Assembly (NCBI GenBank): GCA_004212735.1
Contig: SHBD01000005.1
Coordinates: 1-64,000 of the forward strand
Direction: 5' to 3'
DNA from: SAR116 cluster bacterium
GTDB taxonomy: Bacteria; Pseudomonadota; Alphaproteobacteria; Puniceispirillales; Puniceispirillaceae
Length of the DNA: 64,000 nt
Below, piece after piece: positions 18,901 to 21,543 of the stretch (position 1 is the stretch's first letter; each line of letters begins with the position of its first letter). The position numbers were made by a program, and so were the translations under genes. Under the pieces are notes generated by a model that worked only from the letters and a program-made list of their open reading frames with translations, was not told where the DNA came from and did no database searches.

Positions 18901-19503
18901 TCAGCCTAGTAATTTTCGTGCTTCGAGGATACGGCTGGCTGCGGTGATCCAGCAGAGCGTGCCAAACCCAAAAGCAAAATACACAAACCATTGCGGCATC
19001 ACGGTCATCGCCAGCAAAAGGATGATTGTTTCACCACCCTCGGTCAAGCCGCCCAGATAATAGAACGACTTCACGCCGCGCTCCCGGCTTGAAATCCCCC
19101 GCCTCTCCGCCATCACAGCAAAGGCAAGAAAGCTGACAGCTGTGCCAAAAAAGCTGACGATCAGAAAACAAGCGGCAAGGGCGTTGGCATGATCACACAG
19201 GGCAAAACCAAACGGCACCATTGCATAGAAAATAAAATCAAAAACAATATCCAGAAACCCACCAAAATCAGTGGGGGCAGAGGCCCGGGCAACTGCCCCA
19301 TCCAGCCCATCACAAAACCTGTTGAGCAGGATCAGCACGAACGCCACCAGCATCATCCCCATGGCAATGGCAAGGACAGCGGCAAGGCCAAAGGCAAATC
19401 CGATGACAGTGACCATACTCGCCGAGATGCCGCGCGCCACACACCAGCGGCCAACAGGATCGGTCACCCTGTCGACATAGGGACGAAGCGCCGCGTCAAA
19501 CAT
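18901..19503 (-). CDS. CDP-alcohol phosphatidyltransferase family membrane protein
   Basis: A 200-residue integral membrane protein with about five or six hydrophobic segments. The full catalytic motif Dx2DGx2ARx7Gx3Dx3D is present with D65, D68, G69, A72, R73, G81, D85 and D89. Such enzymes exchange CMP on a CDP-activated lipid for an alcohol such as serine, glycerol phosphate or inositol. Its ATG overlaps the stop of the PSD-like gene (TGATG), an arrangement that mimics psd-pssA operons. It is shorter than usual PssA proteins, so the acceptor alcohol is uncertain. Confidence 0.85.
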   Translation of the reverse strand: MFDAALRPYVDRVTDPVGRWCVARGISASMVTVIGFAFGLAAVLAIAMGMMLVAFVLILLNRFCDGLDGAVARASAPTDFGGFLDIVFDFIFYAMVPFGFALCDHANALAACFLIVSFFGTAVSFLAFAVMAERRGISSRERGVKSFYYLGGLTEGGETIILLLAMTVMPQWFVYFAFGFGTLCWITAASRILEARKLLG

Positions 19504-20210
19504 CAGCCTGATGACCGTCTGCGCCCGCGCGACGGCAGACGTGCAATGGCTGTCTCTCCGGCAAGAACATGCTGGCCAACGGCGATCTGAGGAGTGCAGT
19601 CAGCCGGAATGAACAACTCAACAACACCGGCAAGCCGCGCCATGCCAAGTGGTGTGCCGCGCCTCAGAAACCGCCCGACATGATGCCGACAGACCAGCTG
19701 TCTTGCCGTTTTCCCCCCAAGTTGCACCACCATCACACTTAGCCCGTCATCCTGTGTCAGGGTGATCTCGCGCCGTTCATTGTCAGCCCGCGCCGCCGTC
19801 ATATCCTCATAACCCCCAAACAGCCCGGGAATAGCAAAATTATCGGTGACCCGCCCCTCAATGGGTGCCATCTGCAATTGCACATCGCTGAGCGAGGTGC
19901 GAATGGTGATGCGCAGTGCCTCCGTCACTTGCGGATCGAACTCATTTGTCCGCGCAACTTTGGTAATCTCGGTTACACGGCCATCAGCCGGTGCCACAAT
20001 TACCGCCGCAGATTGCGGTGTCGTGCGGCTGGGAACGCGCAGGATGTGTGACAGCCATACGAACATTCCAAGGGCGAATGTGCCAAGCGGCACAAACATT
20101 ATGGTCAGCAAAATTGTCAGCAATCCGGCAAGCGCTAAAACCGGCCAGCCATCATCAGCAATTTGCCAGAAAAAGGATGGTTTTTGCTGATCTAAAGTGC
20201 CATCACCCAT
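19503..20210 (-). CDS. Phosphatidylserine decarboxylase-like protein lacking the pyruvoyl cleavage site
   Basis: A 235-residue protein with one or two N-terminal membrane segments (residues 22-52) and the overall layout of the short bacterial Psd: APADGRV (D76), AMAPIEGRV-like segment, ADNER at 142-146, and a C-terminal IPADCTPQIAVGQHVLAGET block. In Psd a histidine in DVHVNRAP and a Gly-Ser in RFGSRVD form the self-cleaving pyruvoyl site. Here these read DVQLQMAP (Q111 for His) and RLAGVVE (A194-G195 for Gly-Ser). It therefore cannot form a pyruvoyl group by the known route. It may be a non-catalytic partner of the adjacent CDP-alcohol phosphatidyltransferase or a changed enzyme. The ribosome binding site AGGGAGG precedes the ATG. 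Confidence 0.85.
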   Translation of the reverse strand: MGDGTLDQQKPSFFWQIADDGWPVLALAGLLTILLTIMFVPLGTFALGMFVWLSHILRVPSRTTPQSAAVIVAPADGRVTEITKVARTNEFDPQVTEALRITIRTSLSDVQLQMAPIEGRVTDNFAIPGLFGGYEDMTAARADNERREITLTQDDGLSVMVVQLGGKTARQLVCRHHVGRFLRRGTPLGMARLAGVVELFIPADCTPQIAVGQHVLAGETAIARLPSRGRRRSSG

Positions 20211-20277: not shown

Positions 20278-21543
20278 TCACTGTTTGGGGAGCGCAAAAA
20301 TCTGATTGGGATAAATCAGATCAGGATCGACAATCGATCCCGAATTACGGCGCACAATATCGACATAGCGGACACCCTCACCATAACTGCGATAAGCAAT
20401 CCGCCATAGCGCATCACCTCTGTTGATCACCACCATCTCGCTGCCATCAAGGCCGACATCCAGATCACGCAAGGTGACAGGCAACACATAGGCGGCAACG
20501 CTGGTACCAGTCTCATCATAGAGGGCAAACCGGAATTCAAGGCGCGAAGCCGAGGGGTCAATTGTGCCAAATATCGACCAGTCCCCGTTCGCCATCACCA
20601 ATGCCTCGGCAAAATCACCGCTTTTGGTGCTGGCTGTCACCCGGACGCCGCCTGTGGCCACGCCGGAAATCGCCAGCTCGTTATTCTTGCGCCAGACAAG
20701 GGCGCGCGGCGCAATAGACGGTGTTATGATCGGCGCAGTCGTCTGGTCGGCGACCGTCCCGCTGGTATCTGCAGTGGTAACTGTGTCGGACGTTTTCTGG
20801 CTATCCGTATCGGTACCGCTCTTCTTATCCGTGGTGTCAGCAGAGGCGATGGTGGCTGTTTCCAGCGGCTTGTCGTCAGGCGATTGCAGAAGCTTTGGCA
20901 CCTCATTTACGGTCTGCGGCAGCACGGCGACAAGCGGTTGCTCATCCTTGCTGGCGGCAATTTCGATCGCCAGGGTGGCGTCTGCAAGTTCAGTCTCGCC
21001 TGTTGTTGTTTCCATGGCAACGGACACCAGATGTTGACCCGGGGCCAATGTCTTTTCCAGAATGACAACCCACTCACCATTGTCATCTGCAACTGTCTCA
21101 CCAAGCAGGATATCTCCCTCGAAAACGGTGATCATCGCGCCCGGTGCCGCCTGCCCGGCAAACACCGCCTGACCATCGGGTTTCACCTGCGCCAGATCAA
21201 TGGCCAATAACGTTTGCCGTTGATCCTGATCATCGCTGCCGACGATGGCGGGTTTGTCTGTCGCGCCGGTATCTGTCGCGCCGGTATCTGTCGCGCCGGT
21301 ATCTGATGCGCCGGTATCTGATGCGCCGATATCTGATGCGCCTGTTCGGGTGGATTGGTCTGTGCTGGCCTCCACCTCGCCATTTGTGCCGGTCTGCGGC
21401 GCTATATCGGCGACAATCCCGCTCTTTGTGTCGCCCTGCGGTGCCACGGCTGCCGGTTCCTGATCACCAAGAAACACCACGGCCAGCGCCGCAATCGCAA
21501 TCAAACCACCAACTCCAAGCAATATGTAGGTCAGATAGCGCAC
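20278..21543 (-). CDS. Membrane-anchored LysM-domain protein with pentapeptide repeats
   Basis: A 421-residue protein with a single N-terminal membrane segment (residues 5-26), then an Asp/Thr/Ser-rich periplasmic linker with six G-A-S/T-D-T repeats (about residues 66-95). Two Ig-like/bacterial adhesive-type segments follow (near VFAGQAAPGAMITVFEGD and AISGVATGGVRVTAS). A C-terminal LysM domain from about residue 370 (MVVINRGDALWRIAYRSYG, YPNQIFALP) should bind peptidoglycan. It leads the operon with the PSD-like, CDP-alcohol phosphatidyltransferase, CoxL-like and MsrB genes, pointing to an envelope-linked function. Confidence 0.85.
   Translation of the reverse strand: MRYLTYILLGVGGLIAIAALAVVFLGDQEPAAVAPQGDTKSGIVADIAPQTGTNGEVEASTDQSTRTGASDIGASDTGASDTGATDTGATDTGATDKPAIVGSDDQDQRQTLLAIDLAQVKPDGQAVFAGQAAPGAMITVFEGDILLGETVADDNGEWVVILEKTLAPGQHLVSVAMETTTGETELADATLAIEIAASKDEQPLVAVLPQTVNEVPKLLQSPDDKPLETATIASADTTDKKSGTDTDSQKTSDTVTTADTSGTVADQTTAPIITPSIAPRALVWRKNNELAISGVATGGVRVTASTKSGDFAEALVMANGDWSIFGTIDPSASRLEFRFALYDETGTSVAAYVLPVTLRDLDVGLDGSEMVVINRGDALWRIAYRSYGEGVRYVDIVRRNSGSIVDPDLIYPNQIFALPKQ
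21257..21346. repeat. 15-bp tandem repeat, six units, inside the LysM-protein gene
   Basis: Units read TCTGTCGCGCCGGTA three times and then TCTGATGCGCC-type variants three times. In frame on the minus strand they encode the G-A-S/T-D-T linker repeats. The clean separation of two unit types suggests recent expansion and probably length variation between strains. Confidence 0.9.

What the first reader, a model, noticed from the sequence alone, without database searches (positions are those of the whole stretch)
19503..20210. PSD-like protein that lacks the residues needed to make the pyruvoyl group
The Gly-Ser cleavage pair is Ala-Gly and the catalytic His is Gln, yet the rest of the fold is conserved and it is translationally coupled to a CDP-alcohol phosphatidyltransferase with an intact active site. 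The usual Pss-Psd pair seems converted into a Pss-like enzyme plus a non-cleaving Psd-like partner, which may define a new lipid head-group pathway or a regulatory pseudoenzyme.
Basis: partly seen in the sequence, partly recalled or inferred. Interest (0 to 1): 0.72.

Follow-up and report, generated by a model that had tools for sequence, protein, structure and literature searches.

The report
Conserved dead Psd beside ynjF
In a group of marine bacteria a copy of the enzyme that makes the membrane lipid PE has lost its catalytic parts but has been kept for a long time next to an uncharacterised lipid-making enzyme, which suggests that this protein fold has a second, non-catalytic job in the membrane.

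Summary
Window 19503-20210(-) encodes a Psd-family protein (PF02666, 82 bits) with Ala-Gly in place of Gly-Ser and Gln in place of the catalytic His. It is not an error: 34 of 34 contiguous pairs in its family (SAR116/Puniceispirillaceae) lack Gly-Ser, and dN/dS is 0.10-0.21 in nine close pairs.

The interpretation needs correcting. The partner is not a Pss but an orthologue of E. coli YnjF (49% identity), a CDP-alcohol phosphatidyltransferase with no function that I could find in print. The genome keeps a normal psd-pssA pair elsewhere. Several other Alphaproteobacteria carry LysM-psd-pssA-ynjF; here the site reads LysM-pseudoPsd-ynjF, with pssA gone.

Six genomes (five of genus g8, one of g11; 90-95% complete) have no detected canonical Psd or CAP-type PssA yet keep pseudoPsd-ynjF, so PE synthesis is unlikely to be its purpose. 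In four of the five g8 genomes the canonical psd site also holds a non-cleaving Psd, and a second alphaproteobacterial order has its own pseudoPsd-ynjF pair.

Best reading: a non-catalytic, membrane-anchored Psd-fold protein serving YnjF as accessory lipid-binding subunit. Its existence is shown; its role is inferred. It is a new variant of a known kind.

The parts
19503..20210 (-). pseudo-Psd: Psd-family protein without Gly-Ser and catalytic His (235 aa)
   Evidence: PF02666 82.4 bits; motif alignment; dN/dS 0.12-0.21 in six pairs within the genus
20040..20174 (-). N-terminal hydrophobic helix region, residues 13-57, inferred membrane anchor
   Evidence: model helix H13-57; Kyte-Doolittle windows of 19 above 1.6 starting at residues 20-36 and 39
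19983..19985 (-). Asp76 codon (APADG), kept
19878..19880 (-). Gln111 codon in place of the catalytic His
   Evidence: Gln in 15 of 16 clade-1 rows of A3, the exception L007 having His
19626..19631 (-). Ala194-Gly195 codons in place of the Gly-Ser cleavage pair
   Evidence: Gly at the Ser column invariant in the 16 rows of A3
19501..19505 (-). TGATG stop/start overlap coupling the two genes
   Evidence: sequence read directly
18901..19503 (-). ynjF orthologue, CDP-alcohol phosphatidyltransferase (200 aa)
   Evidence: PF01066 32.8 bits; 49% identity to E. coli YnjF over 193 columns
19237..19311 (-). CAP active-site motif of the ynjF orthologue (D65 to D89)
   Evidence: invariant or nearly invariant in A2, 32 rows
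20278..21543 (-). single-helix protein with C-terminal LysM domain, first gene of the conserved group
   Evidence: PF01476 23.5 bits; relatives upstream of ynjF or psd in other genomes

Best explanation
The protein is a Psd-fold pseudoenzyme. It cannot form the pyruvoyl group because the Gly-Ser pair and the His are gone. It most likely descends from the psd of an ancestral LysM-psd-pssA-ynjF operon, from which pssA was lost in this lineage. Freed from decarboxylation, it is kept because the anchored, lipid-facing Psd scaffold does a second job. Next to YnjF that job is most likely to be an accessory or substrate-presenting subunit of YnjF, a CAP enzyme that would transfer a phosphatidyl group from CDP-DAG to an unknown acceptor. 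Shown: loss of the residues, intact frames, purifying selection, consistent pairing within the family, persistence in genomes without detected canonical Psd or CAP-type PssA. Inferred: membrane insertion, physical contact with YnjF, lipid binding, absence of any catalysis.
For: Family pairing: 35 of 37 f1 genomes have ynjF; in 34 of these the Psd-like gene is adjacent, in one (G018) the pair is split by contig ends, and the two genomes with neither are 58% and 65% complete. All 34 adjacent Psd-likes lack Gly-Ser. dN/dS is 0.10-0.21 in the 9 pairs over 60% identity among ten chosen genomes, against 0.02-0.07 in 2 canonical pairs. Operon origin: of the 26 best-scoring non-f1 ynjF loci (63 such genomes hit), read at about 1.5 kb flank, 12 have psd(GS)-pssA-ynjF; of six psd sites that I chose for longer flanks, 4 begin with the LysM gene. 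Recurrence: at the g8 canonical psd site, in 4 of 5 genomes, pssA is gone and the Psd is again non-cleaving; in another order 4 of 4 Psd-likes found are non-cleaving and adjacent to ynjF. The model fits solved E. coli Psd at Z 10.6, rmsd 2.6 over 134 residues.
Against: In the other families of the same order 20 of 24 genomes have ynjF and no Psd-like gene was found beside it (six loci read directly), and E. coli ynjF has no such neighbour, so YnjF does not need this partner in general. The second g8 pseudo-Psd is not beside ynjF, so a role not tied to YnjF is possible. No physical interaction is tested. Clade 2 is very divergent (23-30% identity to the window) and keeps few Psd-conserved sites, so not all members need share one role. 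A few members keep single catalytic-column residues (a His in L007 and 6 of 17 clade-2 rows, a Ser in 3 of 17), though never both. The tree does not settle whether the gene stayed in place or was re-inserted.
Confidence: 0.55

Rival explanations
1. The protein is still an enzyme, with a new pyruvoyl-independent activity on the YnjF product or another lipid head group. Gln111, Gln113, Asp76, the NERRE stretch and Arg170 would form the new site.
For: In the 16 clade-1 rows of A3, Asp76, Asn144-Glu145-Arg146-Arg147-Glu148, Arg170 and Gly195 are invariant and Gln111 and Gln113 are kept in 15 of 16 each, more than a bare scaffold would need.
Against: Clade 2 as a rule lacks the clade-1 Gln pair (Gln113 column mostly Ile) and varies at the old site; no new catalytic set is shared by both clades. 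L007 has His for Gln111 and L013 His for Gln113.
Confidence: 0.2
2. It is a regulatory decoy of the canonical Psd: it binds PS or PE, or pairs with Psd, and tunes PE synthesis.
For: 27 of 37 f1 genomes also hold a Psd scoring 130 bits or more, and the decoy keeps the fold.
Against: The five g8 genomes and G014 have no detected canonical Psd or CAP-type PssA and still keep the pair.
Confidence: 0.08
3. A translational relic: the frame is kept mainly because it couples translation of LysM and ynjF, and the protein itself does little.
For: The stop and start overlap in the window; the gap is 10 bases or less in 13 of 32 other pairs.
Against: dN/dS of 0.10-0.21 acts on the protein; P74, G77, P116, G129, R170, G179 and T220 are invariant over 33 divergent rows; the gap is over 10 bases in 19 of 32 pairs; the g8 copy at the canonical site is kept without ynjF beside it.
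Confidence: 0.07
4. The gene was not inherited in place but is a later copy of a psd put between LysM and ynjF in the f1 ancestor. This is a rival on origin only.
For: The other families of the order have LysM-ynjF with no psd between (six loci), so the in-place view needs losses there.
Against: The position equals that of psd in LysM-psd-pssA-ynjF of other Alphaproteobacteria; the pseudo group does not nest inside the order's canonical Psds, though long branches make this weak.
Confidence: 0.3

Closest known systems
Phosphatidylserine decarboxylase (Psd), short proteobacterial type (NCBIfam PRK05305 models, PF02666)
   Same: Whole-length homology (NF003679 140.7 bits), N-terminal hydrophobic region, APADG Asp, NER, Arg170, GQ..AGET
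   Different: Misses the curated cut-off of all 11 NCBIfam models hit (252 for NF003679); no Gly-Ser, no catalytic His
E. coli YnjF (partner)
   Same: 49% identity over 193 columns, same CAP motif and YLGGLTEG.ET signature
   Different: E. coli ynjF has no Psd-like or LysM neighbour
Archaetidylinositol phosphate / PIP synthases
   Same: Nearest curated and solved CAP relatives of the partner (NF040950 76.4 bits; 4mnd, 4o6m)
   Different: Below the cut-off of 180; inositol-1-phosphate synthase PF01658 found in 0 of 12 genomes tested
EIIA-Glc / M23-LytM duplicated-hybrid-motif fold (name of the fold recalled)
   Same: Model aligns with EIIA-Glc (3our_B Z 13.4, rmsd 2.7, 126 residues; E. coli 1f3g Z 13.3) and with the LytM domain of EnvC (Z 8.5)
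   Different: Sequence family is Psd, not EIIA or M23

Membership tests
Phosphatidylserine decarboxylase (active enzyme) | Homology over the PF02666 domain | tested here: met
   82.4 bits, cut-off 22
Phosphatidylserine decarboxylase (active enzyme) | Gly-Ser (LGST/FGS) self-cleavage pair giving the pyruvoyl group | tested here: not met
   Ala194-Gly195; 0 of 44 non-canonical rows have Gly-Ser, 51 of 51 canonical rows do; four further g2 rows also lack it
Phosphatidylserine decarboxylase (active enzyme) | Catalytic His of the Asp-His-Ser set (set recalled) | tested here: not met
   Gln111 here; L007 and 6 of 17 clade-2 rows have His in this column but none has His and Ser together
Phosphatidylserine decarboxylase (active enzyme) | NCBIfam equivalog cut-off | tested here: not met
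   Best 140.7 bits against 252
Phosphatidylserine decarboxylase (active enzyme) | Decarboxylates PS | not testable with these tools
   needs an assay
PssA (CDP-DAG serine phosphatidyltransferase), for the partner | TIGR00473 cut-off | tested here: not met
   25.4 bits against 107
YnjF family, for the partner | Full-length orthology to E. coli YnjF with intact CAP motif | tested here: met
   3e-53, 49% identity; motif
PIP / archaetidylinositol phosphate synthase, for the partner | NF040950 / NF045883 cut-offs | tested here: not met
   76.4 against 180 and 51.5 against 170
Pseudoenzyme (functional, non-catalytic homologue) | Catalytic residues lost, gene conserved under purifying selection | tested here: met
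Pseudoenzyme (functional, non-catalytic homologue) | Demonstrated absence of any catalysis | not testable with these tools
   needs an assay

The most novel reading that the evidence does not exclude
The Psd fold has a general non-catalytic membrane function, separable from PE synthesis, that selection keeps after pssA is lost. This has produced non-cleaving Psds at least twice in SAR116 bacteria (the ynjF pair, and the g8 canonical site) and probably again in another alphaproteobacterial order. With YnjF it forms a two-protein system making an undescribed phospholipid.
Probability: 0.3. Interest if true: 0.8.

Novelty: new variant of a known kind. Interest (0 to 1): 0.6.

Why it matters
It ties an uncharacterised, widespread CAP enzyme (YnjF, present in E. 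coli) to the psd-pssA-LysM gene group, and gives genomes (genus g8) in which the PF01066 search found only YnjF and at most one other CAP, PgsA where typed, so the YnjF lipid should stand out there. It also shows repeated loss of catalysis with retention of the Psd fold, which calls for a second function of Psd. Annotation by family may name these proteins phosphatidylserine decarboxylase, which would wrongly predict PE in bacteria such as genus g8.

Tried and rejected
Sequencing error and shifted Gly-Ser: rejected by conservation. Partner as Pss: rejected. Partner as PIP synthase: below cut-offs, and PF01658 found in 0 of 12 genomes. Decoy of Psd as the only role: weakened by six genomes without detected canonical Psd. 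One origin of all pseudo-Psds: the tree joins them on long branches without decisive support (94, not starred), and AU tests do not decide (p 0.115 for f1 pseudo plus g8 second, p 0.559 for g8 second plus canonical); synteny speaks only for the g8 copy. PF13444 (an ornithine-lipid type acyltransferase family, recalled) as a PE substitute: found in 0 of 10 genomes of the window's order tested and in 2 of 2 of the other order. PLD-type PssA was not searched, so absence of every PS route in g8 is not shown. The YnjF acceptor could not be deduced.

Rows dropped and limits: redundant copies of a locus; L019 and L176 (shortened) were left out of the conservation counts; L067 and L073 are contig-end fragments. 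The ORF picker used from then on hid four genus-g2 pseudo-Psds (L007, L011, L013, L061) behind longer opposite-strand ORFs, so lack them; they are. They matter: L007 has a His in the His column and L013 a His at position 113. In one search a regular expression for the His was too strict and reported False for several canonical rows; the alignment replaces it. The tree uses 76 of the 95 rows. PF02666 misses some divergent f1 pseudo-Psds (for example G013, G014 and G025), so its silence beside ynjF in the sister families is firm only for the six loci read. The class-wide Psd list is cut short, so adjacency was counted on fetched loci only. Names of neighbour genes (icd, LOG, msrB, xanthine-dehydrogenase-like, FMN-type synthase, panB, Fur, transporters) were given by eye from the translations, not by a family search.

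Literature: 'YnjF' gave 2 papers, both unrelated by title; 'b1758' gave 7, all unrelated by title; 'phosphatidylserine decarboxylase' with pseudoenzyme 0, with catalytically inactive and pyruvoyl 0, with CDP-alcohol phosphatidyltransferase and Alphaproteobacteria 1 (one passage read, ordinary psd-pssA), with LGST and paralog 1 (passages read), with crystal structure and autocleavage 1 (listing only); SAR116 with phosphatidylethanolamine 1 (passages); Puniceispirillum with phospholipid 5 (passages of one, nothing on Psd there). Only open-licence PubMed Central papers are held.

Full report
What is there. The minus-strand ORF 19503-20210 encodes a 235-residue protein that matches PF02666 with 82.4 bits. 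Against canonical Psds its Gly-Ser is Ala194-Gly195, its catalytic His is Gln111 and the following Asn is Gln113, while Asp76 of APADG, Asn144-Glu145-Arg146, Arg170 and Gly212-Gln213...Ala217-Gly218-Glu219-Thr220 are kept. It overlaps the next gene as TGATG. The window genome has a second, canonical Psd on contig C12 (137.8 bits) followed by its pssA.

Not an error, not a pseudogene. Family f1 has 37 genomes in the relatives set. 35 of 37 carry the partner gene; in 34 the Psd-like gene lies beside it and in one (G018) contig ends split the pair; the two without are 58% and 65% complete. All 34 adjacent Psd-likes lack Gly-Ser. In the 95-row set, 51 of 51 rows with FGSR have the His; of the other 44 none has Gly-Ser. 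That set lacks four genus-g2 rows (L007, L011, L013, L061), which also lack Gly-Ser. Against a simple story: a His stands in the His column in L007 and in 6 of 17 clade-2 rows, and a Ser in the Ser column in 3 of 17 (L044, L049, L050), though none has both. In the 16 clade-1 rows Gln111 and Gln113 are kept in 15 each and Gly195 in all. dN/dS is 0.10-0.21 in the nine pseudo-Psd pairs over 60% identity among ten chosen genomes, 0.08-0.33 in nine ynjF pairs and 0.02-0.07 in two canonical psd pairs, so the gene is constrained, though less than the enzyme. Of 23 named records found with the profile, 11 titles name SAR116 or Candidatus Puniceispirillum; the others are mostly broader MAG names.

The partner is YnjF, not Pss. 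The 200-aa partner misses the pssA (25.4 against 107 bits), PIP synthase and archaetidylinositol phosphate synthase cut-offs and is 49% identical to E. coli YnjF over 193 columns. Thirty-two rows share the CAP motif, and E. coli YnjF shares the signature YLGGLTEG.ET. Inositol-1-phosphate synthase was found in 0 of 12 genomes, so inositol phosphate made in the cell is an unlikely acceptor.

Where it came from. Of 289 genomes of the class, 67 have a YnjF at E <= 1e-30, four of them f1. Of the 26 best-scoring non-f1 loci, read with about 1.5 kb on each side, 12 have psd(GS)-pssA directly before ynjF, 3 more have the LysM gene with no psd, and 11 have neither in reach; of six psd sites that I chose for longer flanks, 4 read LysM-psd-pssA-ynjF. 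In f1 the order is icd - LOG - LysM - pseudoPsd - ynjF - a xanthine-dehydrogenase-like gene (absent in G014) - msrB (names by eye). In the other families of the same order it is icd - LOG - LysM - ynjF - msrB, LysM abutting ynjF in 6 of 6 loci read (L137-L142; L141 starts inside LysM; LOG was not seen in L142). Over that set 20 of 24 genomes have ynjF, and searches with the window protein and PF02666 found nothing beside it, although PF02666 can miss divergent members. So the pseudo-Psd sits where psd sits in the ancestral operon and pssA has gone. Whether it stayed there or was re-inserted in the f1 ancestor is open: the f1 pseudo group is one side of a branch (support 92) and does not nest in the order's canonical Psds, but branches are long.

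It outlives PE synthesis. All five genomes of genus g8 and G014, each 90-95% complete, lack canonical Psd by PF02666 and by the window protein. Their PF01066 hits are YnjF plus one high-scoring CAP in five of six, and YnjF alone in G019; the three that were typed (G011, G024, G014) are PgsA. They still keep pseudoPsd-ynjF. A role only in regulating Psd therefore does not fit them. PLD-type PssA was not searched.

It happened again. In 4 of 5 g8 genomes a second Psd-like protein (L053, L054, L055, L143) lacks Gly-Ser; none was found in G019. On one side it has the same neighbour as the canonical psd site of other f1 genomes (43-54% identity, 4 of 4 loci). On the other side, 3 of 4 have the FMN-type synthase-like gene that follows psd-pssA in L065/L066 (50-59%); L055 lacks that gene and matches the canonical site only further on, at a transporter (53%). 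pssA is absent. Its best matches outside its own group are f1 canonical Psds (75.5-93.6 bits) ahead of f1 pseudo-Psds (49.7-58.5 bits). In a different order of the class, 4 of 6 genomes have a Psd-like protein; all four lack Gly-Ser and lie beside ynjF, and the same search found no canonical Psd there. Of six CAP hits typed there, all fall nearest to pgsA and four pass its cut-off (two in G098, one each in G347 and G348). AU tests do not decide between one and several origins; synteny makes the g8 copy independent of the ynjF pair.

Structure. An AlphaFold2 model from 14 rows has mean pLDDT 76.6 and pTM 0.64, with one N-terminal helix 13-57 and a beta domain. Foldseek ranks EIIA-Glc first (E 4.8e-5) and the Psd-type decarboxylase PsiD sixth (E 2.6e-3). 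VIA-align gives EIIA-Glc Z 13.4 (rmsd 2.7, 126 residues) and E. coli Psd Z 10.6 (rmsd 2.6, 134 residues), with M23/LytM-type domains at 9.5 and below. The fold is shared by these families and says nothing on function.

How it most likely works. Shown: the residues needed to make pyruvoyl are gone, the protein is constrained, it is paired with YnjF across a family, and it persists without detected canonical Psd. Inferred: it sits in the membrane through its N-terminal helix, binds a phospholipid or CDP-DAG with the old substrate face, and serves YnjF as accessory subunit. Against this, YnjF has no such neighbour in E. coli and the sister families, and the g8 second copy has no ynjF beside it. 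I put 0.55 on the accessory reading and 0.2 on a new, pyruvoyl-independent enzyme.

Known or new. I found no paper on YnjF function or on a non-cleaving Psd in the searches listed, which cover open-licence PubMed Central only. The mechanism of Psd maturation is taken from passages of PMC9385802. It is a pseudoenzyme of a known family, so a new variant of a known kind; the recurrence and the link to YnjF are the interesting part.

Noticed in passing
L053:2730-3374, L054:2881-3531, L055:2953-3597, L143:4021-4665: Four of five genus-g8 genomes have a second non-cleaving Psd at the canonical psd site, with pssA (and a Fur-like gene seen after psd-pssA in L065/L066, named by eye) gone.
   Followed up: yes
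window 20278-21543: The LysM protein gene stays next to or near ynjF even where psd and pssA are gone (L122, L126, L133, L137-L142), suggesting a LysM-YnjF link of its own; its linker holds a short GASDTGATD-type repeat.
   Followed up: partly
L150, L181, L182, L183: Pseudo-Psd plus ynjF pair in another alphaproteobacterial order, with no LysM gene found in the stretch read; an aldo-keto-reductase-like gene follows in L150, L180 and L181 (by eye).
   Followed up: partly
L138, L140; G040, G043, G049, G052, G056, G058: Genus g15 has ynjF and no Psd hit in 6 of 6 genomes; G040 carries a phosphatidylcholine-synthase-like CAP (NF045884 242 bits, cut-off 350).
   Followed up: no
L178: A MAG contig titled Bordetella parapertussis encodes a 31% relative of the query; the label looks doubtful and was not examined.
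   Followed up: no
G009:C78:127-734 and G036:C209:3004-3650: ynjF in G009 and the pseudo-Psd in G036 appear in two pieces; probably assembly or sequencing faults in MAGs.
   Followed up: no
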